A stretch of 64,000 nucleotides of DNA from Chloranthus sessilifolius. Lineage: Eukaryota > Streptophyta > Magnoliopsida > Chloranthales > Chloranthaceae. Of this stretch, positions 2,151 through 62,354 are shown piece by piece. The DNA lies in NCBI GenBank assembly GCA_021018995.1, contig CM037595.1, positions 78,679,159 to 78,743,158 on the forward strand, written 5' to 3'. A program made the translations under genes and the position numbers. The stretch's first letter is position 1. Each line of letters starts with the position of its first letter. The notes below the pieces were generated by a model. It searched no databases, was not told the DNA's origin, and worked only from the letters and a program-made list of their open reading frames with translations.

Positions 2151-2164
2151 ACCCCTCCTCGAGC

Positions 2165-2930
2165 GAGAGTCCCCTTTGCCCCATCGCAAAGCCTCATGAG
2201 CCATTCAGATTGAAAAGGGACCGTCACTCGCTATCGTCCCATCGTAAAATTATACCCATGCCCTCATGGCCCATCGTGAAAAGCCAAAAATAAATCTCCC
2301 GAGAATGCAAATACACCAAACAACAAAAAAAGTAAGTCAATCACAACGCAACTACAACATAATCTCACCAAAACCCAAGATCTGCCAAAGAAAGAAACTA
2401 GACACACTTGTTACATGAACACCCTACCCAGCATAACGCTTAGCTCACTTCCCATCATGGACACCACTACCCAAAAAAAAATCATTCATAACACCGGTCG
2501 CACTAAAAGAAGAAAGGGAGAAAGCACGAGCACGTCCCATCGCTAAAACAAAGAGCCTCCTCCCAAAGTGCCCACCACAAACCTACCAGACGCCACTGCA
2601 ACAGAAAGGTAGGAAGACGTGAGACTACTCCCATGTCCCATCTCATTTCACTACTACCAAGCTACAATGCGAATATCTCAGCAATGCCTCTCAAGTCCCA
2701 TCTTGGTACCACTACAATCACCAAGGTCCCATCACGACATCACGCTGACAACCGCCAACCACCACTTAAGCAACAAGCAAAAAAAAAAAAAAGAAAAAAA
2801 AAATGGTACCCTACTACGACATTGCACCCGGAACATTTGCATTACAATGATAGCCACCGAGTCCCGTCGCGATGCTATAATACTGCCAAAGTACCACCGC
2901 TACAATACTCCCAAGGTCTCATCGCACAAT
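2165..2930 (+). repeat. Degenerate array of GTCCCATCGC words (PBS-complementary)
   Basis: About ten copies of a word close to GTCCCATCGC are spread at irregular spacing, for example 2236-2245 and 2534-2543, with others near 2180, 2266, 2450, 2632, 2694, 2726, 2860 and 2911. The family PBS ends in CGATGGGAC, so these words are its reverse complement in the same RNA. The equivalent regions of T3 and T5 carry the same array. Function unknown. Confidence 0.6.
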
Positions 2931-4051: not shown

Positions 4052-4089
4052 GCGTTCTTACTTCGCAAGAGCGCGCCAAAGAGGGGCAT
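4052..4089 (+). other. Hairpin and polypurine tract before the T1 3' LTR
   Basis: An 8-base inverted repeat (4052-4059 with 4067-4074, one G-U pair) lies just before the purine run AAAGAGGGGCAT at 4078-4089. The LTR follows at once. The purine run is the expected plus-strand primer. The hairpin recurs at the same place in T3 and T5. Confidence 0.65.
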
Positions 4090-8618: not shown

Positions 8619-8624
8619 AGTTTT

Positions 8625-8642
8625 TGGCGCCACTGTCGGAGA
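8625..8642 (+). other. Primer-binding site of TG1
   Basis: TGGCGCCACTGTCGGAGA lies six bases after the LTR end. It resembles the TGGCGCCGTTGCCGGGGA site common in Athila and Tat elements. Confidence 0.75.
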
Positions 8643-9077
8643 TATTGATCTTTTTAGTAGACCTGAGTTGTACTATAACTTAGACCAACAAATTCTTTGT
8701 AGTCGTGTTTAATTTAGAATTAAAGTACTACTGATTCTTTATGGAATTTTACAGAAATGGACAGCAGAAGAAGGGAAAAGCTAGAGCTGCAAGTGGAGTG
8801 TAGCTAGCTCTGTTTGCACTTTCTTTCTCCTAAATCTTATGTCATTTATGTTGAATCCCCTGTTATTTTGTTTAGTATAAATCTGTGTAGTTATTACTTT
8901 TTATTTGTTTGAAATTATTTCTGTGTGCTTGTAAGCATTTTTATTACTGTTGGTGCGTGTATACTCGGTAGAAGGTCCTTAAACCCTGACTTGGAACCCC
9001 CAAATCCGAAGGTGGAAAGGATCCTTAGACCTAGACACACCACCTAGGGCACTTCTATTGAGACTGAACCAGTTACC
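8643..9077 (+). other. Untranslated leader of TG1
   Basis: 435 bases between PBS and gag, T-rich in the middle, with no ORF. The last hundred bases (8950-9060) are richer in C and G and have the usual look of a gag leader in this lineage. Confidence 0.6.
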
Positions 9078-16462: not shown

Positions 16463-17792
16463 GCTACTATTTTAATGCTTAATCAAATCTATAGATCTTA
16501 TAATTTCTTTAGATGTCTATAGGATCTATGTATTTGGGACTAGCCCATTTAGTTTTTAGTAGGTCTATTATTTACCATCTGATTTCTCTTGGTTTGATAG
16601 ACACATGGAAAGCAATGCTGGATCTATAGTGAGATCCAAGGAGCTCGGAGGCCTGCAGACCATGGTGGTTGCAACAGTTTTCATGTTCTTTCTCAGGCCT
16701 CTGTGAGATGGAAAGACCAATGGGATACCCTATGACCATTCAAGTGGATAGAGTATAACCCTAAGGTTGTGTCCATCCACATGTTTGAGAAGGATTCTGC
16801 TCCCCTACACATGAGCTTCTAGAGCCTTGTGAGGAGGTTTGCACAGTAACTGGCTCCCCTCTGTTCTACCTAATCGATATCAGGTGTTAGATCTGATCTC
16901 TTATAGTAATTACAGCATGGGGCTGAGTCATTACAGGCTGTTTATAGCAATGACCAGCTGAGCTAAAGGCCTTACTCAACCTGTTACATGATCCTTTTTA
17001 CGGGCACTAGTAAGCAGTAAGCCTTAGCAAAGCACTTAGGATCTTATGGGTTGGAATACCTATGGATGTCAGCCAAGTCTGTGCCCAAATCTGGTGAGAT
17101 TGTAGCACTGGCATTACATAGTGCTTTAATAGTATTTATGGCTAGAGCTGGTCCAGTGGCCTTGGAAATGATCAGTCCACTCTTCTGGATTAGACTAGCA
17201 AAATTCTGGTTTAACTAATAGGATTTGACAGACTCTATCAGATATCCTGTGACCATTATAGTGGACAGAGTATAGCCCTAAGAGTGTCCCAAATGGTATG
17301 GGTTAAACTGGGAGCTTTTACCTTGTTGAGGCTATTAATAGCATCTCAGCAAGGAGCACTGCAGAGACAGACTATATCTGAGTTACATTACTGTATCATT
17401 AGCTCTAGCTCAACCTGCTTACTTCTCATATTTTTTATATTTTATTTTAGCACACATTACTACCATCTTCTTCTTAACCCTTTCTTTAGGATAGGGCTAC
17501 ATTTTATTTCTTTGTTTTTAGGATTAATTTAATATAGTCGTGGCACCCAACTCCCTTTCTTTAGGATTGTCAGATCTGGAGGCCTACTCTTATAGCCCAT
17601 TTTGGGTTCAAGATCAATTTCTCTGTGGGACAAACTCTTACTTATCAAAACTTGCTACAATAGACCCTGTATCTTGCAGGACTATGTGTATTTTAGACTT
17701 GTTGTGCTGACCCATCTCCAATTCCCCACTCTTGATTTATTCTCTCTACTGTTCTTAATAAAATAGCAGTAAGAGTCTCGAAAAAAACTACA
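16463..17792 (+). repeat. Right LTR copy of TG1
   Basis: Collinear with about 7275-8618 and roughly 94% identical by eye over its first 400 bases. It ends ...CTACA at 17792, and T2 integrase sequence begins within a few bases. The promoter-bearing left third of the 5' copy has no counterpart here. The expected target duplication is absent when the flanks of the two copies are compared. Confidence 0.75.
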
Positions 17793-18760
17793 AACTTGGT
17801 AGTCATTCGAGCCAGTCTTCTCTATTGCTTGTTTCTACTGTGTGTTTCAGAATTCAAATCAGCATTTTGTTTGTATCTTCTGCTTGTCCATTTCCTTGAG
17901 GGTAGGACAGTGATGAGTGATGTAGATCGATGCCGAACTTCTTACATAACTTCTATCTTTTCTGTGATGAGCTGTGGTCTGTTGTCGGTGACGAACGTCC
18001 TGGGTATTCCAAACCTGGTGATGATATTTCGAATAATAAACCTTACGAGTGTTGAAGCGGTGATTCTGACGTAGGATTTAGCCGCTGCCCATTTGGTGTA
18101 GTATTCAGTTGCCGTAAGTATGAACACATGCTTGTGAGTGTTCCCAACCGTGTCTGTGAAATGTACGATGACATCGAAGGCCCACATAAAAAATGGCCAC
18201 GACGAGGTCATAGTGTTCAATGCAACTAATGGAGCTTTGATAAGTGCAGCATGTTCTTGACAGTGCTTATAGAGTTGGACGTAGAGGTGACAATCTCTTA
18301 TCATTGTCGGCCAGAAGTAGCCTTGTCGTGTGATTTGATCAGCGAGTCTCTGTCTATCGGTGTGGGCATCGCAGGCACTGGTGTGTACTTTTCGGATGAT
18401 GTATTTCTCTTTGGCGATCGTGACGCATCATAGCAGTACTCCTTTGGTGATGGCTTTTTTATATAGTATTTCGCCGAGTATGTAGAATCAGGCGCATCGG
18501 TTTCTTATAGTCTTCCGTTCAATTTTCATGGTATATGGAGGGACGTGTTGATGCTTTAAGAAGTTCCAGATGCCAAAATACCATGGCTGTCCATTGTCGG
18601 TTGGTAATTTTTCAAATCTAAACATAGTGACTTTGATTTCTGACTTGACGTGCTTTTCTGGAGTGATTGCTTCTTTTGGTCCTACGCCGGTGGGGAGGAT
18701 TGGTAGTTCTCTCTTGACGGTCCATGCTACCTCGTGAGTAGGTACTGTCACCTTTTCGAT
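17793..18760 (-). pseudogene. T2 integrase (broken, partial)
   Basis: Integrase joins element cDNA to the host chromosome. The piece shows the zinc-binding tail (CQEHAALIKAP), the first catalytic aspartate context MWAFDVIVHFTD and the second one FVTDN, all collinear with T5 at 52900-53820. Upstream the N-terminal wording MTVPTHEVAWTVKRELPILP links it to the second RNase H. The far end is replaced by TG1. Fossil. Confidence 0.8.
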
Positions 18761-26238: not shown

Positions 26239-26256
26239 GTCCCATCACAATCATCA
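26239..26256 (-). other. Primer-binding site of T2
   Basis: On the minus strand it reads TGATGATTGTGATGGGAC, three bases after the LTR end ACCAACA. It is a worn form of the T5 site TGGCGATCACGATGGGAC. The implied primer is a tRNA ending in ...GATCGCCA; an arginine tRNA is my guess, not checked. Confidence 0.7.
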
Positions 26257-28600: not shown

Positions 28601-28619
28601 TTAGGTCGGGTATGAAATG

Positions 28620-29275
28620 CAAGACTATTGTTTCAGCCTGTATTTCAACTATATACTATTGTTTCAATCTATAGTCTCCCTACATTGGGATCTGAGCCAC
28701 AGAGCTATTATTTCAGCCTGTGCTCAACCATATACTATTATTTCAGTGCATGGTCCCTACGTGAGGGTTATGGGGTCTGAAATACTAGACTATTGTTTCA
28801 GTCTACATTTTGACTATATACTATTGTTTCAGTATATAGTCTCCCTACGTCGGGATTTGAACCACAGAGCTATTGTTTCAACCTACGTTCAACCATGCAC
28901 TATTGTTTCAGCACATGGTCCCTACATCAGGGTTATATGGTCTGAAATGCTAGACTATTATTTCAGTCTGCATTTCAACTATATACTATTATTTCAATAT
29001 GTAGTCTCCCTACGTCGGGATCTGAGCAACAGAGCTATTGTTTCAGCCTGCGTTCAACCATGTACTATTGTTTCAGCGCATGGTCCCAACGTCAGGGTCA
29101 TGGGGTCTGAGCTACAGAGCTATTGTTTCAGCCTGTGTCCTACCATATACTATTGTTTCAGTATATGGTCCCACATTAGGGCCATGGGATTTGAGCCACA
29201 GAGTTATTATTTCAGCCTGTGTCCAGCCATATACTATTGTTTCAGCATATGGTCCCAAAACAAGGTAAAGGAGTC
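28620..29275 (-). repeat. Tandem repeat in the T2 U3 (units of 80-86 bases)
   Basis: Eight units begin near 28623, 28703, 28788, 28867, 28953, 29032, 29117 and 29201. They alternate between two types, one with ...ATATAGTCTCCC and one with ...GCATGGTCCC, in the order a-b-a-b-a-b-b-b. Each holds two ACTATTGTTTCAG-like words. Other Tat LTRs here have only two or three units. The 256-residue plus-strand ORF in this stretch is a by-product of the repeat. Confidence 0.85.
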
Positions 29276-29331
29276 AAAGGTTGACCAAATAGATTTGTAT
29301 ATTCTGAGAGGGCAAAATGGGGGTGTCTACA

Positions 29332-33336: not shown

Positions 33337-34330
33337 TAGGCTTTTGTATGCGATGGGACTCGTTGGTTGTCATAGTGGCATTGCAATGGGACATGAGAGG
33401 ATTTCCTCTCTTTTCTTCTGTTGCAGCAGGACCTGAGGGTCGTCATTGTGATTGAATGTTTTGGGGAGGTGAGGTTCGTAATGGGACATGGTGGTCCTCC
33501 CCTTATGGTCGTGTGCTATAGTGAGTCCTGTGGGTTATAGGTGTGATGGAACCTGAGGGGAACTCTAGTGAGATGTTCGTGCTGGAATGTGGTATGGGTG
33601 AGATGGGAGGTCAGAGAGCTTCCTCTCTTCTCCTTATTTCTGTGATGGTAGGGGCTCGCTGATCATCGCGAAATGGGACGGTGGAGGGTCAATCCTCCTC
33701 TATTGCTAACGAGCGTGTGTTTCGGTCGCGATAGAGTCTGGTGATTGCTACATGGCAAGGGATTTGGGGATTAGGTTCTCTGCTTTTGCGATGGAACATG
33801 CTCGAGCCTTCCCCTCTGTTGGTTATGCAAAGTTATGCGATGGGATTTGGAAGGTTCGGCTCTCTACGATGGGACGTTGATTGAGCCTTCCTTTCTGCAT
33901 CGTGACGAGATGTGTCCGAGCGTCTTGGGTAGTAATGTCACAATGAGACAGGCTTATGATGGGTTCAAGTTGTAGTTGCAATGCGATGGGACAAGTGCAC
34001 GGTTGATGATTCCTTAGTCATTTCAAGGTTGTGATGGGGCAATGATGGTGTTTCTTTCTTTAGAAGATCTTGCTTATATAATGGGTTAGAGTCAATTTGA
34101 ATGGTGTCGGGATTGTTATGGGATTTGACTTTAGTCTTGGTGATATAATAGGATTTTCGGGAGGCTCACTCTTGACTTTTCATGATGGGATATTAGGTCG
34201 AGCCTTCCTTTGGTCACGTTGGTGTTTTAAGTTGTGCGGTGAAATTTTAGCATCGTGGTGGGACATAGGTGTGGTCAATGGCTCTCTCTCTCTCCCTCTC
34301 TAAACGGCCTATGAGGCTACGCGATGGGAT
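33337..34330 (-). repeat. PBS-complementary array in T3
   Basis: About twenty degenerate copies of GCGATGGGAC on the plus strand, that is GTCCCATCGC in the element's sense strand. Clear copies are at 33350-33359, 33866-33875 and 33983-33992. Irregular spacing of about 30-60 bases. The same array is in T1 and T5. Confidence 0.62.
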
Positions 34331-34379
34331 GGAGGAGAAAGAGGGATTCTGATCGAGATGAGACAAAGGGGTGTGAGGG

Positions 34380-35348: not shown

Positions 35349-37736
35349 TGTAGACACCTCCATTTTGCCCTCTCGGAATATATGAATTTATTAGGTCAAC
35401 CTTTGACCTCATACCCCGACATGGGACCCATGCACTGAAACAATAGGACATGGTTGAATGCAGACTGAAATAATAGCCCTGTGGCTGAGATCCCAACGTA
35501 GGGAAACTATATATTGAAACAATAGTATATAGTTGAAATGCGGACTGAAATAATAGTCTTGCATTTCAGACTAGAGACCAGACCTGGACAACCCCTAATT
35601 AAGCGCCTGAAACCCCGTGAGAAATTCTATTGCACGTCAGACCACAAACGCGCAATCAGTCCCCCTTTCAGACCAAACTTCCTTTCCCAGACAATCTCGA
35701 GACTTGATCATGTGCCTGACACTAGATGCGCGATCGGATTGTGTGACACATCACCGACACACAATTGGCCTACACCCGGCCTAGCCTCACTGTCCTTGAC
35801 CCCTAAGTTTCCTCGATTAAACGCTATGAGATGGCGCTTAATTGGATTAAGCACCCAAAAATGGGTGCACAATTAGTTCTAACGTTATTAGGACTAGAAA
35901 ACTCGCTGAGTAAGTCAGCCGATCGCTCACTGAGTCGGTGACCGACTCAAAGCGATTAAGCGCCTAGAAACTGGCGCGTAATTTAGTTAAACGCCTGAAA
36001 AAGGGCGCGTAATTGAAGAAAAACCTATAAAAGCTTTTTTTATTTTCAACCAAAAGACATAGAAAGAACACGAGAGAGAACGGATTGTTTTTGTGATTCT
36101 GAAACCAGAGAACTTCGAGGACAAACCCATAGAGCAACCTAGTCATGATTTTAAAATTCAAGCTTCAAATCTCCGAGATTTCTCTCAGCAGCCCCGATCC
36201 TAGGTAAAAATCTTAGTTTTAGAACTAGGGTTTTTCTTTAGTTTTAATTATAGATTTTAATTTTCAACCCGAGACCATAGCACCCTTTTTTTAGACCTCA
36301 AATTTTTATATTTGGTTATGATTCTCCGAATTCAAAACCAGTCCTTAATCTGACGGTCTAATTTACCGACCCTAGGCTTTAATTCCATTCTAAAATCTTA
36401 ATCTCCAATCCTATCATTAATCTCTGGTTCTAGATCTTAGACTCTAGAACCAGTCCTTAATCATACAGTTTGATATTCTGATTTCGGACCTAAATTCAGT
36501 CCTAGAAATTTAAATTTTAGTTTTAATTTCTTATTTTAATACCTCTAAAAATCCTAAATATAATTTTAGTTTCTATAATTCTAGTTTCACAATTTAATTC
36601 ATAATTATTACTCCGAAATCGACTCTGAAATATCCAAAAAATATTATTTTATCATTATAAATCCAATTTATCTTTAATCTCAGCCACCCGATTTGCCCAA
36701 GGGAACTTATGGAGGGTACTCGAGAGCGAGGCCAATCCTCCTTAGCATAGCGGGCCCAAAACCCTTTTTTTAAAAGAATTTTAGAATTAATTAATTACTT
36801 TTTTTATCCTTTTAGTATAATTAATTAGTAGATTTATTTTATTTTAGCATAATTAATTAATTAAGTTAATTAGATTTTAGTATAATTAATTAATTTCTTT
36901 AAATCAGATTTTAATTGGTTAATTTCTTGTTTTAATCAGATTTTAATTGGTTAATTTCTTACTTTAATTAGAATTTAGTATGATTAATTCATTGTTTTAA
37001 TTAGATTTTTAATATAGTTAATTCATTGCTTTAATTAGAATTTAAATAAAATTAGTTTATTTATTTTAATTAGATTTTTAATAAAATCAGTTTATTTGTT
37101 TTAATTAGATTTTAATAAAATTAATTCATTTGCTTTAAATTAGAGTTTTATAAAATCAGTCTTCTATTTCAATTAGAATTCTGGTAGGGCTGTTATACTT
37201 GATTTGATTAGAATTCCAATACAACTAGTATACTTTCTCAAATTTGAATTTCAGTATAACTAGCATGCTTGATTTAATTAGAGTTTCACCATAACTACTA
37301 CATGTGCACTCCTAGTATAATTAGGAAACCTCATCACAATCAGACTTCTAATGAGATTAAGAGACTAAAATTAATCGGACTTCTAGTAGTATTAGGACAC
37401 TAAATTAATTAAAATTCTAATAAGATTAAGAAATTAAATTAATTAGACCCCCAATAGGATTATAATATTAGAATAGATTCACTCACTCTAACAAATTCAC
37501 AGCTAAACTCGCAACAGAATCAAGGAAGTCTAAACTGACCAGAACTATAACAATAATAGGAAATAAAAGGAAAATTAAACTATCTAAATTATAAGAAAAA
37601 GGCATAGTTGCTGACGTTCGCAGGTGGACGATTCAGTATAGAAGTAACCCATACTCGCTCTTAAGCGTGATCATTGACGTGTTGCAGGGTCGATAAATAT
37701 TTGTAGCTGGCGATCGCTATAAACTAGGAACCTTCC
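35349..37736 (+). repeat. 5' LTR of T4
   Basis: Begins TGTAGACACCTCCATTTTGC. The palindrome GAGTCGGTGACCGACTC is perfect here (35932-35948). GCGC-AAT words lie at 35600-36020, and TATAAAA at 36026-36032. The 'GCGGGCCCAAAAC' block is at about 36755, and an AT-rich TTAATTAGA part runs to about 37470. TGGCGATCGC at 37708-37717 repeats the first ten bases of the family PBS. Confidence 0.83.
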
Positions 37737-37763
37737 AAAAGACAACACTTTTTCTCACGGGTT

Positions 37764-39417
37764 GCTCCAAAAGACAACACCATTAAAATCGAAGATCTCC
37801 CTAAAATGCTCGATGAGTACATGGCTAAGAGAGAGCACCCCGGTCACTCATTTGGATTTGACAAATTTTGTTGGGACGTCGAGTTTAATTTACCAATAGG
37901 ATTTAAGCCACAGAAATTTATCAAATATAATGGCACGAGAAATCTGAATCATCACTTGGCCCTCTTTTGTAATGATTGCCAACCCATACGTGATAATTAA
38001 GGACTTCTCATTCACTATTTCCAACGCTCGTTAGAAGGAGAAGCTTTAGATTGGTTTGAGGGACTTCCACTTTATAAGATAGAAACCTTCGATAAATTAG
38101 TCGGTCAATTCCTAGACCAATACAAACACTTGAACCTAGAGATAGTCAGTCTCAGCGATCTAATGGCAGCCAAGCAAGGACCTGATAAAGAATTTACCGA
38201 CTTCGTCGCCAAATGGAGAAAACTCGCTGCTAGGACCTATAGCTCAATGAAAGAGAAGGATTCGGTGGACATTATCATAGATAAAACTAGAGAACCGTTG
38301 AAGAGCGCACTTGTCATAAGTGATTACCCCGACTTCACTGCACTCCACTCTCGGGCATCCCGACTAGCACGACACATTAAAGGCGGAGACCATGCTCTAT
38401 CCCTAGTCACATCAAAAGTGGGCTCTTCTAGTGAATCAAAATCGAAAAACAATAAGAAAGCCTTAGGAACCAAACAGGTCAACACCGTTGTTAATCAAGG
38501 ATAAAACGCTGGGAATAAAAATTTCCACTCACGAAACTTCAAGCAAAATCAAAATCAACAACGGTATATCAACCAAAACCAAGGTGCTAATCAACAAAGA
38601 TACGTGAACCAAAACCAAGGCCAGAATCAGAATCAAGGCCAATACTTGAACAGAAACCAATACCCTAACATCTCAAAACCAAAATACGACACAGAACCAA
38701 TCGGCCCACGCACGAAATTATAATAACGTACCCCTACCGCAAAACTTTAACCCAGTCAGAGGCCCCTACCAACCGAGGCAGGAACACTATCCCCCTTTAC
38801 CAGATACAATTCCCAACATCTTTCATCTCCTTAACACTCAGAATCTCCTCCGATTCCCGTAAGAAAAACCTCACCCATGGCCTTCAAATCTAGACTATAG
38901 TAAGTACTGTGCCTTCCATTGATATGCGGGACACAACTTAGAGGACTGTTGGGTCTTCAGGGACGTCATCTATAACATGAATGGCCAAAGTCAGATCGAT
39001 TGGGAAGCGCTTAGGAACCCTAACCCTAATAATAACCAACCCCAACAAAATTTAGGGAACGTTAATAACCCCATGCCTAATCACAACCAAGCAACACCGG
39101 CTCAGGTCACCACCGTAGATCTCTCCGGTCAATTCCCCTTCTAACCTTCCACCTTAATCACTCTCATTCAACCCTCTGCTTCTTTTGCCACACCAACAAG
39201 AGCTCCTTCACCCCCGCATCCCTCGGCCTTGATCACTCACATCGCCCAGCCGAATCCACCTCCTTATCCAAAATTCACTCAGATACGAGTCCATTCCTTT
39301 AAGGCCAGGAGACCATTCCTCCGTAGTCACCCACCAGAGCCCTCAACCCCTCCGAATTCTGAACCAATGACATTACCCCTCCCTTCGTCCGATCCTGAAC
39401 CCGAGTACGGAGATCAC
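37764..39417 (+). pseudogene. T4 gag (broken)
   Basis: Capsid wording HPGHSFGFDKFCWDVEFNLP (about 37840), then a second block (38130-38504) with GPDKEFTDFVAKWRKLAART and KSALVISDYPDFTALHSRAS. 38530-38700 is glutamine/asparagine-rich. A zinc-knuckle-like segment is near 38910-38960, and a proline-rich tail (39060-39410) ends where T5 is inserted. Same order as T2 and T5. A few breaks. Confidence 0.8.
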
Positions 39418-41836
39418 TATCGGTGCACACTTTTTCTGGGCTCCTCTCGGTTCCCATTGAATCAGTGACTTCCAATTCTGTCCTGGTAGACTCTAGCGAT
39501 GCGGCATTTGAAATAATTAAAGTAAAAAAATAAATAATGATAGGGGTTTTCTAGGAGGATTCCTAGTTTATTGCGATCACCAGCTACAGATATTTATCAA
39601 TGTTGTAACACGTCAATGATCACGCTTAAGAGCGGGTGTGGGTCACTTTTATACTGAATCGTCCGCTTGCGAACGTCAGCAACGTTCTGTTTCTTTAGGT
39701 TAGATAGTTTAGGTTCCTTTTTATTTCCCTTTGTAGTTATAATTCTGGTCAGTTTTTACTTCCACGATTCTGTTATGAATTTGGTTATATAGATTTATTC
39801 CAATCCAGTCAGGAGTCCAGTTAATGTTGATTTCCCAATTCTATTAGAAGTTTAATTTATATTAGTTTCCCAATACTACTAGAAGTCCAATTAGTTTTAG
39901 TCTCCTATTGGTACAAGGAGTGCATGTATAGTAGTTCTGGTGAGACTTTAATTTGTTCAGGCATATCAGGCGTACTAGAATTCTGATTGAATAAGGTATA
40001 ATAATTCTATTGAAATTCTAATTGTAGCTTATAACAGTCCTGTTAGAATTCTACTTGAAATAAAAGAATAATTTTACCGTAATTCTAATTTAAGCAAATG
40101 AATTAATGCTAATAAAATCTGATTAAGACTAATAAACTAATTTTTACCAAATATGATTAAAATAAATAAACTAATTTTATGAAAATCTCTAATTAAAGCA
40201 ATGAATTGACTATGCTAAAAAAATCTAATTCAAGCAACGAAATTAATCCCATTAAATTATAATTAAAGGAAGGAATTGACCAATTGAGTTCAGATTTAAA
40301 GAGATTAATCAGTCATACTAAGATTAATCACTCAATAAAATAAACCTACTAATCAATCATGCTAAAAATATAAAACTAAAGCAATTAATTAATTCTGAAA
40401 TTTCTAAAAAAAAAGGGTTTGGGCCCGCTATGCTGAGGATTGGCCTCGTTCCCGAGTACCCTCTGTAAGCTCCCTTGGGCAAATCGGGTGGCTGAAATTA
40501 AAGACAAATTGATTTTTGAATCGTAAAATAGTATTTTGAGCTTTTCAGAGTTGATTTCAGAATAATAATTATGAATTAGATTGTAAACTAGAATTATAAA
40601 ATTAGAATTAATATTTGGGATTTTTGAATGTATTAAAAATAGGGAATTAAAGCTATAATTTAAATTTTACGGACTAAATTTGAGTCCGAAATCAGGAAAT
40701 TAGGCCGTATGATTAAGGACTAGTTCTGAATCAAAGGATTAGAACCAGAAATTAATGATAGGACTGTAGGTCGAGATTTTAGAACTAAATTAAAGTCTAG
40801 AATCGGAATATCGGACTGATAGATTAAGGACTGGTTCTAGAAACAGAGAACTAGAATCAGATATATAGAATTTTAGTCTGAAAAGGGTGCTACGGTCTGA
40901 AAATAAAAAAATAATAGAATTCCTAGATCTAGTGATTAGAAGTTATGGTTGTTAATTAAAAGATCAAATCCTTACCTAAAGGTCGTGGCTGTGGAGAGAA
41001 ATCTTGAAGATTCGAAGCTTGAATCTCGAAATCATGACTAGGCTGCTCTATGGGTTTGTCCTTGGAGTTCTCTGGCTTTGGAATCCTAAAAAAAATCCGT
41101 TCTCTCTCGAAAAATTGCCAACCTCGCGGGCGAATTAGGAAAAAAATATTTTGTAGGTTTTTCTTTAATTACGCGCTATTTTTTGGGCGTTTAATTGAAT
41201 TACGCGTCAGTTTCCTAGCGCTTAATCACTTTGAGTCAGTCACCGACTCAGTGAGCGACCGGCTGACTTGCTCAGAGAGTTTTCTAGTCCTAACAAAATT
41301 TAGGCAAATTGTGCGCGTGATGGGAGGTGCGCAATCTGATTAAGCAGTTCTTCAGAAGCGCTTAATCAAGGAAACTTAAGGGTTAAGGGTAGTGAGACTA
41401 GGTTAGGCGTAGGCCAATTGTGCACTAGTTTTGTGGCACTCAATCCGATCGCACGTTTGATTTCAGGCGCGTGATCGAGTCTCGGATAGGTCTGAGAAGA
41501 GAAGTTTGGTCTGAAAGGGGGACTGATTGTACATTTGTGGTGTAGCGTGTAATCGAATTACGCACGGGGTTTCAGGCGCTTAATTCAGGGTTGTCCGGGT
41601 CTGGTCTCTAGAATGAAATGCAAGACTATTGTTTTAGTATGCATTCCGATTATATACTATTGTTTTAGTATATAGTCTCCCCATGTCAGGATCTGAGCCA
41701 CAGAGCTATTGTTTTAGCCTGTGTTCAGTCATGTACTATTATTTCGATGCATGGTTCCCATATCAGCGTTAAAAAGGGTCAAAGGTTGATCGAAACAAAA
41801 AATATATTCCGAGAAGGCAAAATGGGAGTGTCTACA
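39418..41836 (-). repeat. 3' LTR of T5
   Basis: About 2.42 kb, TGTAGACACTCCCATTTTGC (41836, minus strand) to ACCGATA (39418). Its left 0.9 kb is about 95% identical to 61429-62345. Palindrome at 41233-41249, GCGC-AAT words 41165-41590, and a worn TATA-like TACAAAA near 41150. The first part holds two or three ACTATTGTTTTAG words. Confidence 0.88.
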
Positions 41837-41875
41837 GATGCCCCTCTTCAGTGCGCTCTTGCCAAGTAAGAACGC
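41837..41875 (-). other. Polypurine tract and hairpin of T5
   Basis: AAGAGGGGCATC on the minus strand (41848-41837) directly before the LTR, with an 8-base inverted repeat (41853-41860 and 41868-41875, one G-U pair) upstream. Conserved in T1 and T3. Confidence 0.68.
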
Positions 41876-42884
41876 GTTGAAGAAGTAGGCACTCCTCACC
41901 CGAGGTGTCTTCTCGCTTCTCTTGGGAATTCACAAATGTGAATTGGTGAAACAGACATGACATGCTTGGCTTTTTTATCTATCAGTGCAAGCTAAAATAG
42001 AGTATTTGAAGGGCAAATGGTAGTTGTCGAAGAACACATTCTGGGTATGTGGGTGCATGGCGCATCCCGTCGCATGACGCGAGCTAACAGAGAGATTTTA
42101 CACAATCGAGGTACCGTGGCATCACTCAAATGTCCAAAATAAGGTCCAGGGACTCTGAACTAATGATTCTGTGCAGTGGCATATGCGCTTGATCCAATTC
42201 TGTGTAGTGGTATATGCGCTTGATTGCAGGTTCAGGCGGTCTTAGGAGTTAAAGGTTGGGTTCAAGTGTAATTTATGTGCGGGTGATAGGGCACTTAATT
42301 AGTGTTTTTTTTGGTTTCTTGGTATTTTCTTTTTTTTGGTATTTAGAGAAAGATGAGTCGGAGTCTATTCATTTTGTTACTTTATTTTTTTTTTCTATTT
42401 TTTTGGTATTTTTTTATTTATTTTATTTCTTTTGAAATAAGAGATTTTGTTTTGTGAAATAAAGGTTTTTTTTTGTTGTTTTTTTTTAAATAAAGAGGTT
42501 TAGAGATTTTGAAATTTGAGGGATTTTAACTTAAGATCAATTCGGTGGTAAAATGGTGGAAAATGTAGCTTCCGAGACATTGCTGAGCAAATCCACTGGT
42601 ACGAGATTTGTGGACCCGACCGTTATTGTGGTTGTCAAGATGACACTTGACATGCCGGATACTACATCTAACCTTCTCGGCGAGTATTGATGATTGTCTC
42701 TTATGGGAGGACTGCAGTGATTCACGAGTCGAGAGAAACGAGTTTTGAAAATATTTAATTTAATCATAGTTAACTATATTGATAGGTAATATCGAGTAAT
42801 TAAGAAAAAAGTGGGTAGTACTTACCTATGGTGATACTTACCTAGGTTGCATGCAACTTGTACGGTTCGTGGCGGTGTTGTAGT

Positions 42885-43050
42885 GTCGCGATGGGACTTT
42901 ATGGCTATTATTATGATGCAGTGCTCCGGATGTGATGTCGCGACGGGACTTTAGAGATTTCTCCTCTTCAGGTCTGCTGTGGTAGGACTTGGCGGTTGTG
43001 ATACAATGTCTTGGGATAAATGATGTCGCGATGGGACCTGGGGATTAATT

Positions 43051-43088
<38 letters not shown>

Positions 43089-43640
43089 CGTTGCCTTAGC
43101 GATGGGACATGACCGAGCTTTCCCTCTCTTCGTCATACGGCGTGCCATGCGCTGCCTGAGCCTTCTTTTATTTTCAGGTAGTGAGGTTTGCGATGGAATG
43201 TCAGCTGGACGTAGTTAGCGATGGGGCATTGGTAAGATGTTATTTGCACGATGGAACGTTGTTGTCTTTCTTTAGTGGATCTTGGGTTCCAGAAGAAATC
43301 GTGTTGCATTGTGATTGATTTCATCTTTGGGTGGTTTGTTTTCGGCTTTTCGCAATGGGTCATGAGGGTATGGTTAATTTATTCTGATGGGACTGGTTAT
43401 TGAAGTGGCATTGCATGTGTGCACGTTATCGCAGTGGGGTTTTCCTTCTTTGGTGGGGTCATGAGGGCATTACAGTAAGGGGTGTGTGTCTTGCCGCGGC
43501 AGGACTAAGAGATGATCGACGTTATAGGACGGGTGAGTATGTCTCTTTTTTTTTGTGGGGGCAGCCTGTGAGGCCACGCGATAGGACAAAAGGGTGTGAC
43601 CGCGACGTGATAATAGAATCTTGGCCGCAATGGGATAAAG
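42885..43640 (-). repeat. PBS-complementary array in T5
   Basis: About fifteen copies of a word near GCGATGGGAC on the plus strand. GTCGCGATGGGAC occurs exactly at 42885-42897 and 43025-43037, with a one-base variant at 42937-42949. Further copies are at 43099-43108 and near 43190, 43220, 43250, 43355, 43385, 43577 and 43625. The element's own PBS reads ...CGATGGGAC in the opposite direction, so in the sense RNA the array is complementary to the PBS. Confidence 0.68.
43052..43086. repeat. (GA)n microsatellite
   Basis: An uninterrupted GA run of about 30 bases within the T5 3' region. Simple slippage repeat. Confidence 0.9.
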
Positions 43641-43689
43641 GGTCTTGACCAAGGTGGGGTACAAAGGTGTAAGAGTGTAGATTTCGTCC

Positions 43690-44600
43690 AAAAATTAAGT
43701 ATTGCACTCCTGTTTTCGGTCGCTCAATACGATTGTGTGCCCTTTTTCAGGCGTGCGATCTCAAACTTGAGGGGCCATTTACGCGCGTGTATGTGTGTGT
43801 GCAAAATGGATTATGCGCTATAATCCTTGCGCGTGATTGAAGCATCACCTGGTCAGCGTACAGCCAGTGTATAGGTGGCCTTTCGTATTGTGTGTTTACA
43901 ATGGGTCGTTTAATTGGTTTGCGCGGTCTATAGACTGCGCGTGATCAGAGCGTCGCCCAGATGGCGCGAGCGATGGTTTAATTTCACGCTCAGGTCAAAG
44001 CGCGTATTTCGGATTGTGCGCCATGTGAGTGGCACGTGATCTAATTAAGCGCACGTGTTCGTGCACGTGATTGAGTCCATACTTTATATATAAGCGAAAG
44101 AACTTTCATTTGTTTTTCATTCTGGTTTACTCTCGAGTTTTGACATTTTCTGAATATTTTGTGTTCTAAAATTTTTGTTTTAGTGATATTGGGCGATCTA
44201 ACCGTCTGATTGGGATGTCGTTTCTTTCTATATTTATAAATTTTACGTGATCTCTGTCTCGAGGTGATGCTCATAGACAGTGTTATTCTGGGAATGGGTG
44301 GTATTGGGAATGAGTGGGCCTGTCTTCACATTGATCCTTTTTAAGGAGCAATGAAGGCGGCGTTGAAGCGGAGGCGGTGGAGGAGGCGAAGATGGCGAAA
44401 GAGCAAGGGTCAAAAGTGGGGGAATGTGTTTCCCAACCAATGCTCCCTGAAGTCTCTGATTGGATGCTCCAAGCAGAATTTGCTCCTCACTTCGTGTCAG
44501 TTTCGAACCCAGTTTTCATTTTGGGTTGTAGGTTAAAGTTTTAGGTTTTCGTTTTGGGTTGTAAGTTTAGGAGGTATGCCTCTGGTGATAATTATAAAAT
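43690..44600 (+). promoter_or_regulatory. Antisense promoter-like module 1 of T5
   Basis: GCGC-AAT words at 43690-44060, then TATATATAA at 44085-44093 and a pyrimidine-rich leader. A GA/CG-rich stretch follows (44340-44410), which reads as arginine-rich but has no supported product. It matches T3 at 34380-35340 and T1 (reversed) at 1260-2150. The direction fits transcription toward the PMD gene. Confidence 0.5.
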
Positions 44601-46430
44601 TTTAAATTATAAATGAATGGGCATTTCTTTTGTTCTTATTGTGCTTGTTTATCCGTTTAAATTTATTAACGGATTAGTTGGATTTATCTGATTGGTTTGA
44701 CTTAGTTTTAAGGTTTAGTTTAACTTGAATTTTTAGGATTCATTTATTCAGGGCTTATCCCGATGTTAATTCGTCTTATTGAGCCTGGTTTAGAGAATTT
44801 ATTTGGTTATATTTGATTAATTGGAGGCATTTTTTTTCAAACTAGTCAGGTCTCACTCTAGAGAATTGTTATTATTATTATTATTATTATTATTTTAATA
44901 TAAAGTTTTTGTTGGTTTCAGGTTTGATTTTTAACTTGAGTTTTATCTTTTGTTTAATTCAACATGAGGTTGAAAAAGTGTGAGTCTTCAAAGGTTCTAG
45001 ATAGGTGTTAAATATCTAAATCCTATTGGTTCATCCATTTTTCCTAGGATCTGTGCCTCTTAGGGGGTTAATTGTTGTGTAATTACTGGTTCATCTATGT
45101 TTTTCATGGATTGTGGTATTTCAGGGGGGTATGTGTTTGGTTTAGATTAGATTAGATTAGAAAGGTTTAAAGATGTAACACTTGTCATTCTATGGTTTAG
45201 GGGGTATAGTTTATAAATGTGTGAGCCAAAAGTTTTGGGCTCTTGTTCTTTTTTATTTTAAGTTTGGGATTAAAAGTTTTAAGGCATTCTCTTAGGGCAA
45301 TTTTTTTTTAATGTCTTTTCTTCCCTTCTCTTTTGTATCCCGGGTATTGGACCCTAAGAATTGTGTTTATTGTGTGGGTTCTTGAGAATGAACGGGATTG
45401 AAAATGCAAGATAGCAGTAGAATTGCTGCCGTGCTAAGGGAAGAGATGGAGGAGAAAAAGGTGGTAGAAAGGAAAGTCAAGGAAAAGGCAGGGTCAGAAT
45501 TCTCGTGACCGATACCTATTTTTCCTCGGTAGGCCTTGTGGATTTAGCGTTAGTTGTTCCTCCTTTTTAGTGTTTCCAAGGTGGGCTCCTAAGGGTGGAT
45601 CCTACAGGTCCTAGGTGGCCTTTCGTGAGCCACTCTTTCTTTTCTGCCGACTCGGGGCAAGGGGAAGAGGTTATTACGACTAGAGTTCGTTCAGGGTGCC
45701 TCCTTTCTTCAGGTTTCTCCGAGATCTCTAGTTTACCGAATGAACCCGGATTCAGGGATTGTCTGAACGTGCGGATTTTGAGTTTCTTATTTTAAGTTGT
45801 ATATTCAGAGGGTATGCCCTCGGTGTGTTTTGTAATTATTTATTTATTTATGAAGTGATTATGATTTTAATTCTTTTGTAAATTCCAGTTTAGGTTGTTT
45901 TGCAGCTTATTTGATTTATTTGGAGTGTGAGATTTATTTGTTAAATTTATTTATTCTGGATTGGGGCATGTTACGAGTATTTCTTTTGTTTTGATTTAGT
46001 TTGGGCTTAGTTGGAGTGTATAAATGATGAGGACATTTTTGTTTGGTCTTATTATATAGGCAAAAAAGGGGGCATTTTTTTTTCTTTTGGTTGTTTAATT
46101 AATATTAATTGGGGTTGTGTGTGATATGAGGGTATTCGTTTTAGTTTTAGATCGGTGTTAGTTGAGGCAAAATTTTAGCTTTAGTCATAGTTTGGGGCAA
46201 GTCTCCTTTTATATTTTTTTGCTTTGGTTGGGGTGTGCGAACGGTGTCAGGTCATTTTTTCATTTTTAGGGCATATATTTCTCCAAGTTAGAGGTATTCT
46301 TGGATCAGTCTTGACATGGAGATGGTTTGGACCGATAATTGGTGTTAGGAATCTCCTTGTTTAGGTCTGTGAAAGTGCTGTTTTGTATCCGTATATTTTT
46401 TTATTTTCCAGGGAATTGCGGCTTCATTAT
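44601..46430 (+). other. T5 spacer between the two antisense promoter modules
   Basis: T-rich, about 1.8 kb. It holds an (ATT)n microsatellite (44867-44894) and a block at 45300-45800 that is conserved in T1 (reversed, 1-430). The conserved block has short open pieces but no product I recognise; it may be an untranslated exon or intron of the antisense transcript. Confidence 0.45.
44867..44894. repeat. (ATT)n microsatellite
   Basis: About nine ATT units in a row inside the T5 spacer. Confidence 0.9.
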
Positions 46431-46960
46431 GGGCATTTAAATGAATTGTGCGCCAGTCTTAAAGAACATATTCCAAGGCATCAAAAAGTTATTTAGCGTT
46501 AATACGGTCGTTTAATCGAATTAAACGCAGGGTGAGCGGCGCTTGATTAGAGCAGTGGTGGTTACTGTGGAAGTGACTGTTGACATTCACGCGCACTGGT
46601 TCGTGCATTTGATGTGACTACGCGCCTGGAAGGCGACGCGCAACCAAGTGGTCGGGTTAATTTGAGCAGGCGACGATTAGATTGTGTGCTCTAGATCGGT
46701 CGTGTAATCCGAATTATGCGCTACCAAGGTGGTGCTCGATTGATTTGAGCGCCTGAATTTAAGCGTGCGATTCGACTGTTCCCTATAAATGGCTTAAAGT
46801 TTCTCATTTCTGTCGCGCGATCTATTTTTAATCTCTGATTCTCTGGTTTTCTTGTTTCTGTGCGCTCTGGTTTTCGTGTTTTCGTGATATCTTATGATCC
46901 GGTCGTCCGTTTCAGACATCGTTTCTTCCATTCTCTTTAATTTCTTGAGCTCTTCGTTCT
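46430..46960 (+). promoter_or_regulatory. Antisense promoter-like module 2, upstream of the PMD gene
   Basis: GCGC-AAT words at 46430-46770, TATAAAT at 46784-46790, then a T-rich leader. A GATCCGGTCGTCCGTTTCAG piece near 46895 parallels wording that follows the TATA boxes at 44085 and 34893. The first PMD coding block begins about 230 bases downstream. This is the best candidate promoter for the PMD gene. Confidence 0.6.
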
Positions 46961-47017
46961 AGGATAGAGTTTGAGGGTGGTGGTAGACCTACTCTTACTA
47001 TTTCTGAGTTAGGGAGG

Positions 47018-50000
47018 ATGCTAGGGGCGGAGATAGGTGAGACGTCTGAGGCCCGGACCGATATTGTTAGGGAGGCGGACGTTGGGAAGGTAGTTGGAGA
47101 GGAGGTATTGAAGTTTGACCAGTCGATGGTCAGGGAGGAGGCGCTCGAGATTGAGCAGGGGGCTGTTGAGGGCGAGGGTGAGAGAGTTGAGGATGAGATA
47201 CCCGCGGGTGAGAGAACTGAGGGTACCGTTGCAGAGCACCAAGGTGCAGCTATGGAGCATCCGAATCGTAGGCACTTCCCGCTGGATGATTTCTTTGTTC
47301 GAGGCTTGGTAAGCACTCACGAGCAAGAGTTCTTCCATTTCCTTAGTGGCTTAGGTTATAACATAGGCTTATTAGGATTTGGAACCCTTCTAATTTATGT
47401 CAAACCTGTATTAATGATTGATTGTGTGCTCACTCATGCATCATGATTGCTTCTAGGGGTAGGTTATGTTTCTACTCAGTTGTTCTTATCATATTTTTTG
47501 TGTTTATTATAAATTGTCATTGTGTTTGGGGCATATTTGACTTGCTTTTAGTTTCTTTTTTTTTTTAAATTCGTTTTCCTTTCATCATAAGTATGTGTTA
47601 GTTTTACTGTTATTGTTCATGTTTCGTTCAATGGGAGCCCTCGCAGCTGGCTATCAACTCGGCATGGGCTGAGTCTCATGCTTGGTATCATGCCTTATCG
47701 GAGTTTCAGCAGGCATGGTTAGTGTCTTTCGGTTTTGAACCGATCCTAGAGCTGGAGCCCTTTCAGGTTAATCGTGGCCTGATTACGACGATCTTGGAGA
47801 GGTGGAGGGAGGAGCATCAAGCGCTTCTCTTTCCAGTTGGGAGGATGTTACCGACTCTAGAGGACTGGGTCCGCATCACCGGTCTTCATTTTGAGGGTGA
47901 GCCGATCACTGGGTGGATGGCAGGACATTATCTAGAGGTGTGTGAGGAGATCTTGGGTGTACTATATAGGTCGAGCGGCTCGGGGCCAGGTGTAGTTCAG
48001 GTCACTTGGTTTTTTGATATGTTTACGAGTGGCTTCACCTCCCTGAGGTGCCATTCAGAGGCGAAGGTGACCTATGAGGTGCGTTGTATAGTAGTGGTGG
48101 GTCGGGAGCTCATGGTGGAGCCGATGGTAGCTGTGGATAGGGTGCTCAGAGCATTTTTGATGCACTTCCTCGATGCCGTACTTTTCTCTTCTTCAACTCG
48201 AGGATGCGTCATCGAGTTGTTTTTTATGGTACTTGGGGATCTAGATCGAGTCCCTACCTATGCGTGGGGTGCGACCGCGTTGGCGCATCTCTATGAGCAG
48301 CTTTACCGTCGAGGCTAGAGCGTCGCATCGATCGGAGGTTTCCTTTCGTTCATCCAGGTGAGTTTTAATTAATTAATGTCATGAGGTCCTTAGTTTGGTT
48401 ATGTTAGGTCTTTTAATGGTAAATGTTTCTCCTTGTGTGTTACTTTTGTTGTTGTTACTTTTCCTTTCAGTTTTGGGTGTATGATCATTTCTCTTTCCTA
48501 CATCCTGGAGTTCCATTGAAGGTGAGGTTTACGTTCCCACAGATGCACGTGTGGAGGGAGGCATTGAGGGGTCGTTGCTAGTCTTCGAACCTCCAAATCG
48601 CACACGGCCTCTTTGAGGATATGCATGCGGGGCAGGTATAGATCGTCATGTGTATGCTTCTTTTTTCTTTCGTTTTAGTGTTTTAGGATTTGAGTCTTCA
48701 TTGAGGGTCAGCTTGTTTGTTTGGTCGTAGGTGATCTGGAGGCCATATGAGGATGAGGAAGATGCGGAGGTACCGATGATTCAGTCTGGCCGGCCCTTCT
48801 TCGATGTGGATATATGGGTCCATTGTTTTGAGAGGGTGGAGAGGATCCACACTTCTCGCGTGGTACAGCAGCTGGGGCTCGCTCAAGGAGTCCCTCCAGA
48901 GATTCACCACTGAGTGGCGAAGAGGATGACCAGTCCTCTTGGCCAAAATTTCACGGCACGGATGGCTCTTCAGATAGCAGATTTTAGAGTTGGGGGGACT
49001 AGAGTTAGAGGGGCACACGATGAGGTGGAATGCATTAGTGGCTCTTTCGCGATCGGAGGGTCGGAGTCAGCGTCAGCTTTGAGAGAGAGGCTGGCTGCAT
49101 TAGAGCAAGGCCATCTCACCGCGAGTGTGCGAGGGGCATTAGACACTCTCCACAGGTCGATGGAGCGGATGGGGTGTGCTCCTTGTCCGGATGAGGAGAT
49201 GCTGCAGTCTTTAGCCTCCTCGGTTGCTCAGGCTAGGACAACGGAGGATGAGTTAGGGGTTCGGCTAGCAGAGGCTCGGCAGCTCCTGGTGAGTTAATTT
49301 ATGTTTTTTTTTGTATTATGTGGACTTAGTCTTCGGGTCACTCTAACATGGTTGAGGTGTCTCATTTTTTTATTTTGTTTTGGACAGTCTGAGAGGGAGG
49401 GTGAGGTTGCTCGTCAAGCGGCCCTGCTGGATGTCTATCGTAGTCAGCAGCTAGCCGACCGGGAGATAGCGGCCAGTATACGTTCTGAGATTGATCGATT
49501 GGTAAGTGTCTTTCTAAGTATGATTTTGTTCAATTGTTAACATCGTGAGCTTGCCAACTTATATGTTTATTGTTATTCGTAGAGAGCCGAGCTGGTCGTC
49601 GGAGGTCCCATTCCGGCATTTGATCCGTCTTCAGTTGCTTCCTCTAGTCGGGAGGATCCAGCGATGGCTCAGCTTCGGGCTGAGCTAGATCATTGGGTAA
49701 GTTCCGTTCAATCTTACTTGCATCATTGCATTAGCTTGTTGAGTGTCGTTGTTTTACTTTCTTAGTAGTTTACTAATATCATGTGACATTTCAGCGTCAG
49801 GTTGTCGAGGATCTTCAGACGAGGGCGGCGACTGCTACCTCTCTACGTCCAGAGAGCCAGGTAAAGTTTCTTTTGATGTGGGATAATTCTGTTTCGGTTA
49901 TTCCATCTTTATCTTATTCTGACATATCTTGTGTCGGATTATTTGGTTCTTTGTGCAGGCTATTCCGGATTTCGTTCCCGAGGCTCCCCCTCAGGAGTCT

Positions 50001-61407: not shown

Positions 61408-61425
61408 GTCCCATCGTGATCGCCA
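61408..61425 (-). other. Primer-binding site of T5
   Basis: Minus strand TGGCGATCACGATGGGAC, three bases after the LTR end. The implied tRNA 3' end is GTCCCATCGTGATCGCCA. The CCA end and stem-like spacing fit a tRNA; an arginine tRNA is likely but unchecked. Confidence 0.8.
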
Positions 61426-61428
61426 GTC

Positions 61429-62354
61429 TATTGGTGCGCGCTTTTTCTGGGTTCCTCTCAATTCCCGTTGAATCAGTGGCTTCCAATTCTATCCTGGTGG
61501 ACTCTAGCGATGCAACATTTGGAATAATTAAAGTAAAAAAATAAATAATGACAGGGGTTTTCTAAGCGGATTCCTAGTTTATTGCGATCGCCAACTGTAG
61601 ATATTTATCGACGCTGCAACACGTCAATGATCACGCTTAAGAGCAGGTGTGGGTCACTTTTATACTGAATCGTCTGCCTACGAACGTCAGCAACGTTCTG
61701 TTTCTTTAGGTTAGATAATTTAGGTTCCTTTTTATTTCCCTTTGTAGTTATAATTCTGGTCAGTTTAGACTTCCATGATTCTGTTATGAATTTGGTTATA
61801 TAGATTTATTTCAATCCGGTCAGGAGTCCAGTTAATGTTGATTTTCCAATTCTATTAGAAGTCTAATTAATATTAGTTTCCCAATACTACTAGAAGTCCA
61901 ATTAGTTTTAGTCTCCTATTGGTACAAGGAGTGCATGTATAGTAGTTCTGGTGAGACTTTAATTTGTTCAGGCATATCAGGCGTACTAGAATTCTGATTG
62001 AATAAGGTATAATAATTCTATTGAAATTCTAATTGTAGCAGTTATAATAGTCCTGTTAGAATTCTACTTGAAATAAAAGACTAATTTTATCATAATTCTA
62101 ATTTAAGCAAAGGAATTAATGCCAATAAAATCTGATTAAGACGAATAAACTAATTTTTACCAAATCTGATTAAAATAAATAAACTAATTTTATAAAAATC
62201 TCTAATTAAAGCAATGAATTGACTATGCAAAAAAAATCTAATTGAAGCAACGAAATTAATCCCATTAAATTGTAATTGAAGTAAGGAATTAGCCAATTGA
62301 GTTCAGATTTAAAGAGATCAATCAGGCATACTAAGATTTAAGACAATTAATTAC
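61429..62354 (-). repeat. 5' LTR of T5 (part next to the PBS)
   Basis: Matches 39418-40345 at about 95% by eye. The far part of the LTR, with U3 and promoter, lies beyond T6 and outside the window. GCGATCGCCA at 61584-61593 is the reverse of TGGCGATCGC, the PBS-like word in the LTR. Confidence 0.87.

What the first reader, a model, noticed from the sequence alone, without database searches (positions are those of the whole stretch)
42885..43640. Array of PBS-complementary words in the 3' region of T5
About fifteen degenerate copies of GCGATGGGAC (plus strand) lie in the 3' region, while the element's own PBS (61408-61425, minus strand) ends CGATGGGAC. In the sense RNA the array therefore reads GTCCCATCG, the reverse complement of the PBS and the same as the primer tRNA's 3' part. 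The array could pair with the PBS (RNA circularisation, or blocking of early priming), act as a tRNA mimic, or be an unrelated protein site that matches by chance. The longest form, GTCGCGATGGGAC, also fits the CGC of the PBS-like word TGGCGATCGC seen in the LTR. I know of no description of such an array.
Basis: partly seen in the sequence, partly recalled or inferred. Interest (0 to 1): 0.8.

Follow-up and report, generated by a model that had tools for sequence, protein, structure and literature searches.

The report
Repeated primer-site-like words beside antisense promoter
A large plant jumping gene carries about fifteen worn copies of a short word near its end; the word closely matches the site where its copying starts, but it lies upstream of what looks like a backward-facing promoter, so its job is still open.

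Summary
The array is real. GCGATGGGAC with at most 1 mismatch occurs 23 times in the window against 1.66 expected; 20 of the 23 lie in three homologous arrays, T5, E3 and E1. Words within 2 mismatches all share one orientation (35 to 0). Spacings favour 24-34 bp (15 of 43 against 5.0): a decayed tandem repeat in a hypervariable 3' region of the Tat/Ogre kind. The PBS resemblance is also non-random: matrices from each array rank the window's two PBSs (T4, T5; homologous, so one event) first and second among 121,876 outside positions. Against a pure PBS role: a conserved right flank absent from the PBS, and words no better conserved than spacers (33 of 45 against 270 of 353 columns). Best reading: degenerate repeats in the upstream region of an antisense promoter. 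A PBS-linked origin or function stays open; no family with another PBS was available.

The parts
42888..43636 (+). T5 array: 15 non-overlapping words at <=3 mismatches, consensus Y-GCGATGGGAC-NTNRGNG; words at <=2 mismatches all in one orientation (antisense to gag-pol)
33350..34364 (+). E3 array: homologous array in the 3' region of a second minus-strand element (14 words at <=2 mismatches)
2178..2925 (-). E1 array: homologous array in the 3' region of a plus-strand element (10 words at <=2 mismatches)
61408..61425 (-). T5 primer binding site, TGGCGATCACGATGGGAC
   Evidence: rank 1 or 2 outside arrays in 4 of 4 core matrices
26239..26256 (-). T4 primer binding site (diverged copy), TGATGATTGTGATGGGAC
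44085..44094 (+). Putative antisense TATA box TATATATAAG; equivalents in E3 (TATATATA at 34893) and E1 (TATATAAG, 1751-1758, minus strand). TATATATA occurs 5 times on the plus strand of the window, so the argument is the shared place, not the word
43783..44072 (+). Proximal region: second repeated word GCGCGTGATT (6 same-strand copies at <=2 mismatches against 0.72; 2 opposite against 0.26) and raised CpG
47602..48318 (+). Antisense ORF with the first part of a Plant Mobile Domain (PF10536, 2.4e-25); a further PMD piece at 48731-48913 (4.7e-04, below Pfam's cut-off). It begins 3.5 kb after the TATA; that one transcript joins them is not shown
42500..42799 (.). Conserved block between array and 3' LTR (82-87% identity to E1, 73-84% to E3 per 100 bp)
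39417..42153 (-). T5 3' LTR; the outer 0.9 kb is 93.7% identical to 61428-62338 of the 5' LTR, the inner boundary is only inferred from homology to other LTR-like stretches
61584..61593 (-). LTR word TGGCGATCGC, similar to the start of the PBS; exact in 3 of 6 aligned LTR copies, one mismatch in 2, two mismatches in 1

Best explanation
The array is a decayed tandem repeat (unit about 30 bp, core GCGATGGGAC) in the hypervariable 3' region of an Ogre/Tat-type LTR retrotransposon, shared by three related elements in this window. It forms the distal upstream part of a putative antisense promoter: array, then GCGCGTGATT words, then TATATATAAG, then, further on in T5, an antisense ORF with a Plant Mobile Domain. 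Inferred, not shown: that this promoter is active and drives the PMD gene, and that the words act as clustered binding sites for a host or element-encoded DNA-binding protein that tunes antisense transcription. Shown: the array, its orientation and spacing, the TATA at the same place in three elements, and the PMD ORF. The complementarity to the PBS is a real sequence fact and unlikely for a random site; I leave open whether it reflects origin, function or coincidence. The odds given here and for the rivals are not exclusive of each other.
For: Spacings 24-34 bp in 15 of 43 against 5.0 (0 of 5000 random placements, made without a minimum gap, reach 15). Same orientation 35 of 35, as expected from tandem duplication. 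The array is hardly alignable (44-59% to E1, 33-56% to E3 per 100 bp, 42900-43699), next to better conserved sequence: 82-87% to E1 at 42500-42799 and 72-75% at 44100-44399. Arrays end 449 (T5), 529 (E3) and about 420-430 bp (E1) upstream of the TATA; GCGCGTGATT same-strand copies 6 against 0.72 in T5 and 5 against 0.41 in E1 (0 of 1000 shuffles each), 3 against 0.62 in E3 (22 of 1000); CpG observed/expected is highest in the two bins 43750-44249, 1.37 and 1.9, against 0.45-1.12 in the other nine bins. PMD on the antisense strand, 2.4e-25. Right flank beyond the PBS end in all three arrays. Precedents: Grande gene23 is transcribed antisense from a promoter upstream of it (PMC7264820, passages); Sirevirus repeated motifs lie upstream of the LTR TATA and at the start of ENV (PMC2829016, passages); hypervariable 3' tandem repeats are common in the Tat lineage (PMC7004042, passages).
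Against: No transcript data. The PMD ORF starts 3.5 kb beyond the TATA, and the ORFs between that I searched (44335-44541, 45571-45792, 46949-47443) match no Pfam family. The promoter word was chosen by eye and also occurs on the other strand. Conservation after the TATA is uneven (51% to E1 at 44400-44499; to E3 only 46% at 44000-44099 and 59% at 44100-44199). Strictly uniform orientation is not needed for protein sites. Words are not better conserved than spacers: 33 of 45 against 270 of 353 columns with strict gaps, 66 of 139 against 1160 of 1535 with lax gaps. Tandem Repeats Finder does not call the array. This reading does not explain why the PBS is the best outside match.
Confidence: 0.5

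Rival explanations
1. PBS pairing: in the genomic RNA the array (GUCCCAUCG...) pairs with the 3' part of the PBS, leaving its first nucleotides free. This circularises the RNA, masks the PBS before tRNA annealing, or shields it from tRNA fragments that target the PBS.
For: Core matrices rank the PBSs first and second of 121,876 positions, 4 of 4 matrices. The right edge of the core coincides with the end of the 18-nt PBS (information 1.74 bits at the last core base, 0.17 at the next). Windows pairing with T5's PBS at <= -18 kcal/mol: T5 6 (0.41 in shuffles), E3 7 (0.34), E1 3 (0.28), each 0 of 100 shuffles; with T4's PBS 5, 7 and 4. One-orientation rule. tRNA 3' fragments act on LTR elements through the PBS in mammals (PMC7472051, passages).
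Against: The flank NTNRGNG has no partner at the PBS. 29 of 35 words mismatch T5's PBS at one position. Words no better conserved than spacers. With a lax cut-off (-12) T5 does not exceed its shuffles (12 against mean 8.7, maximum 14). With the 18-bp matrix two LTR sites outscore T5's PBS.
Confidence: 0.2
2. PBS/tRNA-derived origin without present function: reverse transcriptase copied part of the primer tRNA into minus-strand DNA up to the modified base after the PBS end, and the insert was then amplified as a tandem repeat.
For: Orientation and right boundary are those expected for a copy of the tRNA made during minus-strand synthesis (inference; the block at tRNA position 58 is recalled). 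The strong core stops at the PBS end. Words agree between elements about as well as spacers.
Against: Only 10-12 nt match, no CCA end, no longer tRNA homology seen. The right flank does not resemble the PBS surroundings. The primer tRNA itself could not be identified here.
Confidence: 0.15
3. Neutral hypervariable repeat whose resemblance to the PBS is a coincidence picked out by a search over many features.
For: Such arrays are common in Tat elements (PMC7004042 and PMC11963269; passages and one Discussion). No conservation above spacers. T4 and T5 PBSs are homologous, so there is one coincidence, not two. The finding was selected for being striking.
Against: The chance that one given 18-nt site holds the top outside hit is about 18 in 121,876 before look-elsewhere (my estimate). 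Edge coincidence with the PBS end.
Confidence: 0.3

Closest known systems
Hypervariable 3' tandem repeats of Tat/Ogre elements (Macas et al. 2009, not seen; as cited in PMC7004042)
   Same: Position between pol and 3' LTR; hypervariable between relatives; repeat-like spacing
   Different: Unit so decayed that little more than a 10-18 bp motif remains; the core resembles the element's own PBS, which the passages I read do not mention
Grande gene23 / antisense additional ORFs of Tat elements
   Same: Antisense gene in the 3' region; precedent for a promoter upstream of the antisense ORF
   Different: Here the antisense ORF carries PMD and a word array lies upstream; transcription not tested
Sirevirus repeated motifs (PMC2829016)
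   Same: High-copy short motif upstream of a TATA box and near an extra 3' gene
   Different: Ty1/copia, palindromic, CGG-CCG core; here Ty3/gypsy-like and a non-palindromic word
Ty3 bipartite PBS (PMC5371799)
   Same: A 3' region that takes part in primer/PBS chemistry across the length of the RNA
   Different: Ty3's 3' segment binds the tRNA; here the sense array is tRNA-like and complementary to the PBS instead

Membership tests
Ogre/Tat lineage of Ty3/gypsy | gypsy-type pol with RNase H before integrase on the sense strand | tested here: met
   RT_RNaseH_2 1.5e-15, then RVT_3 3.5e-19, then rve 5.5e-09 along the minus strand; 9 of the 12 ORFs were searched, and the RT core itself was not matched in them
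Ogre/Tat lineage of Ty3/gypsy | extra ORF with Plant Mobile Domain (reported for 57% of Ogre elements) | tested here: met
   PF10536 2.4e-25, antisense, 47602-48318; 57% from PMC6317226 passages
Ogre/Tat lineage of Ty3/gypsy | placement in an RT phylogeny | not tested
   no reference RT set was used
Tat hypervariable 3' tandem repeat | repeat array between pol and 3' LTR, hypervariable among relatives | tested here: met
   array 44-59% identical to E1 per 100 bp, flanks 82-87% (42500-42799) and 72-75% (44100-44399)
Tat hypervariable 3' tandem repeat | regular tandem unit | tested here: inconclusive
   spacing peak at 24-34 bp, 15 of 43, but TRF finds no such unit
Sirevirus repeated motif | palindromic CGG-CCG core in a Ty1/copia element | tested here: not met
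   word GCGATGGGAC has no CGG-CCG core; RNase H precedes integrase, the gypsy order
Ty3-type bipartite PBS | 3' segment complementary to the primer tRNA in the sense RNA | tested here: not met
   the sense array reads GTCCCATCGC, complementary to the PBS, and no opposite-strand word at <=2 mismatches was found in the arrays

The most novel reading that the evidence does not exclude
An LTR retrotransposon carries in its 3' region a many-copy array of words complementary to the 3' part of its own PBS. The array folds the genomic RNA onto itself at the PBS and leaves the 5' end of the PBS free for the CCA end of the tRNA. It thereby times priming, or hides the PBS from host 3' tRNA fragments. The array began as a copy of the primer tRNA taken up to the base that blocks reverse transcriptase.
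Probability: 0.2. Interest if true: 0.85.

Novelty: new variant of a known kind. Interest (0 to 1): 0.55.

Why it matters
The function of the 3' repeat arrays and of the antisense ORFs of Tat-lineage elements is called unknown in papers read here (PMC11963269, Discussion; PMC7264820, passages). This locus gives two testable ideas: an antisense promoter region with two kinds of repeated words, and a repeat core that matches the element's own PBS. A scan of plant genomes for arrays that follow each family's PBS would decide between promoter sites and PBS pairing.

Tried and rejected
tRNA mimic: only 10-12 nt shared, and ARAGORN finds no tRNA gene in the window. Array as coding repeat: rejected, many spacings are not multiples of 3. 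Plus-strand strong-stop DNA priming on minus-strand DNA at the words: orientation is wrong (reasoned, no call). Control T2 (PBS at 8625): the nine 10-mers of its PBS give 0 to 5 hits at <=2 mismatches per strand of its interior, with no shuffles run and a laxer cut-off than the <=1 used for T5; T2's interior shows no cluster of array words. Word-masked alignment with low gap costs gave word columns 66 of 139 and spacer columns 1160 of 1535; with strict costs 33 of 45 and 270 of 353. In both calls columns with a word on one side only were left out of the two counts. Substitution types in the words showed no bias that favours G-U pairs (read by eye). Relatives outside the window: none by pol (viral, genomes), integrase-motif pattern or PMD. 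The exact PBS 18-mer hit one viral contig, L001; of its 11,735 bases I listed ORFs of 100 aa or more in bases 1-6000 only (14 ORFs) and noticed no retroelement ORF by eye, without a family search. A paper search for the letters of the PBS and the word gave 26 papers, 20 listed; among those 20 none is about LTR elements by title and none holds the 18-mer. Paper searches made: (listings capped at 10-20 rows); no title or opening of an abstract that I saw there describes an array complementary to a PBS. Macas 2009 and Gomez-Orte 2013 were not seen and are cited through other papers.

Full report
Observation. The word GCGATGGGAC with at most one mismatch occurs 23 times in the window on both strands against 1.66 (sd 1.36, maximum 6) in 100 shuffles. 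Six lie in T5, seven in E3, seven in E1, and three elsewhere: the PBS of T5, the PBS of T4, and 50559. Within the arrays the words at <=2 mismatches number 11 (T5), 14 (E3) and 10 (E1) in one orientation and 0, 0 and 0 in the other; shuffles give 0.56, 0.74 and 0.36 for the first orientation. An EM search started from windows of the arrays finds GCGATGGGAC in T5 and E1 and TGTGATGGGA in E3, each time behind low-complexity or pyrimidine runs. Among 10-mers that hold all four bases and are not dominated by one, the best counts at <=1 mismatch are 6 (GCGATGGGAC, T5), 8 (TGCGATGGGA, E3) and 7 (GCGATGGGAC, E1); 40 shuffles of each array never exceed 3, 4 and 4.

Anatomy of the word. Across 35 words (<=2 mismatches) the core is preceded by a pyrimidine (31 of 35) and followed by a weaker pattern: T at +11 in 23, G or A at +13 in 30, G at +14 in 23, G at +16 in 26 of 35. 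These four columns exceed the 99.9% null value; +10, +12 and +15 do not. The flank appears in each array separately. The score for the whole flank is 2.57 against 1.27 (sd 0.16), but that pattern was read from the same data. Word-to-word distances (<=3 mismatches, overlaps removed) have a minimum of 24 and 15 of 43 lie at 24-34 bp; 5.0 are expected and 0 of 5000 random placements, made without a minimum gap, reach 15. This is what an old tandem repeat of about 30 bp leaves behind. Tandem Repeats Finder does not see it.

The PBS link. T5's PBS is TGGCGATCACGATGGGAC at 61408-61425, minus strand. A weight matrix of the 10-bp core from all arrays, and matrices from T5, E1, E3 and E1+E3 alone, all place the PBSs of T4 and T5 first and second among positions outside the arrays (4 of 4 matrices, 121,876 positions). 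The words behind every matrix were picked as within 2 mismatches of GCGATGGGAC, so the matrices are not fully independent of that word. T4 and T5 are relatives (78% over 9.4 kb), so this is one event. With the 18-bp matrix the order outside the arrays is T4 PBS 15.4, an LTR site at 4572 15.1, an LTR site at 41316 14.3, T5 PBS 13.8, which weakens the link. At one PBS position T4 and T5 differ, and 29 of 35 words have the base of T4 there. Windows pairing with the T5 PBS at <= -18 kcal/mol are 6 in T5 (0.41 in shuffles), 7 in E3 (0.34) and 3 in E1 (0.28), 0 of 100 shuffles each; along T5's interior 7 of 9 such windows fall in the 42-43 kb bins, but at -16 only 10 of 25 do. At -20, E3 with the T4 PBS is no longer exceptional (1 window; 7 of 100 shuffles reach it). 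At -12 with longer windows T5 does not stand out (12 against mean 8.72, maximum 14), while E3 (21, maximum 14) and E1 (13, maximum 9) do. A 12-nt word pairs with T5's PBS at -17.7 against -36.0 for a full 18-nt match.

Setting. The MAFFT alignment of T5, E1 and E3 shows a conserved block beside the 3' LTR (82-87% to E1, 73-84% to E3), the poorly alignable array (44-59% to E1, 33-56% to E3), and mixed conservation around and after a TATA box (to E1 72% at 44000-44099, 72-75% at 44100-44399, then 51% and 79%; to E3 46%, 59-78%, then 74% and 80%). TATATATAAG stands at 44085 in T5, TATATATA at 34893 in E3 and TATATAAG at 1751-1758 (minus) in E1; TATATATA has five plus-strand copies in the window in all. 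The arrays end 449, 529 and about 420-430 bp upstream of it. Between array and TATA a second word, GCGCGTGATT, chosen by eye, recurs in the same orientation: 6 against 0.72 in T5, 5 against 0.41 in E1, 3 against 0.62 in E3; the other orientation has 2, 2 and 0 against 0.26, 0.33 and 0.20. CpG observed/expected is 1.37 and 1.9 in the bins 43750-44249 and 0.45-1.12 in the other nine bins; the array itself has 0.74-1.03 in the bins 43000-43749. From 47602, 3.5 kb beyond the TATA, the plus strand of T5 encodes the first part of a Plant Mobile Domain (2.4e-25) and later a piece of its second half (4.7e-04, below the curated cut-off). Whether one transcript links TATA and PMD was not tested. PMD is reported for 57% of Ogre elements (PMC6317226, passages). 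The E1 and E3 pieces in the window do not reach as far as the PMD ORF would lie.

Selection. In word-masked local alignments with strict gap costs, word columns agree in 33 of 45 and spacer columns in 270 of 353 (sums over three pairs; columns with a word on one side only left out). With lax gap costs the counts are 66 of 139 and 1160 of 1535. There is no sign that single words are held better than spacers.

Reading. The safest description is a decayed tandem repeat of the known hypervariable kind, placed in the upstream region of a putative antisense promoter. The most likely role is a cluster of DNA sites for that promoter (inferred). A role or origin tied to the PBS is the more novel reading. 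It is favoured by the rank of the PBSs, the shared right edge and the single orientation. It is opposed by the extra flank, the mismatch of most words with T5's own PBS at one base, the 18-bp matrix and the absence of extra conservation. The decisive comparison needs families with other PBSs. No whole genome was held for this window, and searches of the viral and prokaryote collections found no relative.

Literature seen. PMC11963269: outline, abstract, passages and the Discussion section. PMC7004042, PMC3305785, PMC6317226, PMC7264820, PMC5371799, PMC7472051, PMC2829016 and PMC12786077: passages only. None of the passages shown describes words complementary to the element's own PBS. Statements on the block at tRNA position 58 are recalled.

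Noticed in passing
61584-61593 (-), 6350-6359 (+), 37708-37717 (+): The LTRs hold a word TGGCGATCGC about 160 bp before the PBS in T5, one mismatch from the first ten bases of T5's PBS; its core GCGATCGC is a palindrome. Exact in 3 of 6 aligned LTR copies, one mismatch in 2, two in 1.
   Followed up: partly
43783-44072 (+): Second repeated word GCGCGTGATT just upstream of the antisense TATA box, enriched in T5 and E1 and weakly in E3. A similar string GCGTGATCA stands after the TATAAA of the LTR.
   Followed up: partly
7282-17793: T2, an LTR element with 91% identical LTRs and PBS TGGCGCCACTGTCGGAGA at 8625, next to the T4 fragment; no PBS-like array seen.
   Followed up: partly
28608-29331: Several direct repeats, offsets of about 80 and 165 bp, inside an LTR-like stretch.
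   Followed up: no
4572 (-) and 41316 (+): LTR sites in E1 and T5 score 15.1 and 14.3 with the 18-bp array matrix, in the same orientation relative to the element.
   Followed up: no
37708-37760: A plus-strand LTR breaks off shortly after the TGGCGATCGC word and is followed by internal sequence, so LTR end and PBS appear to be missing.
   Followed up: no
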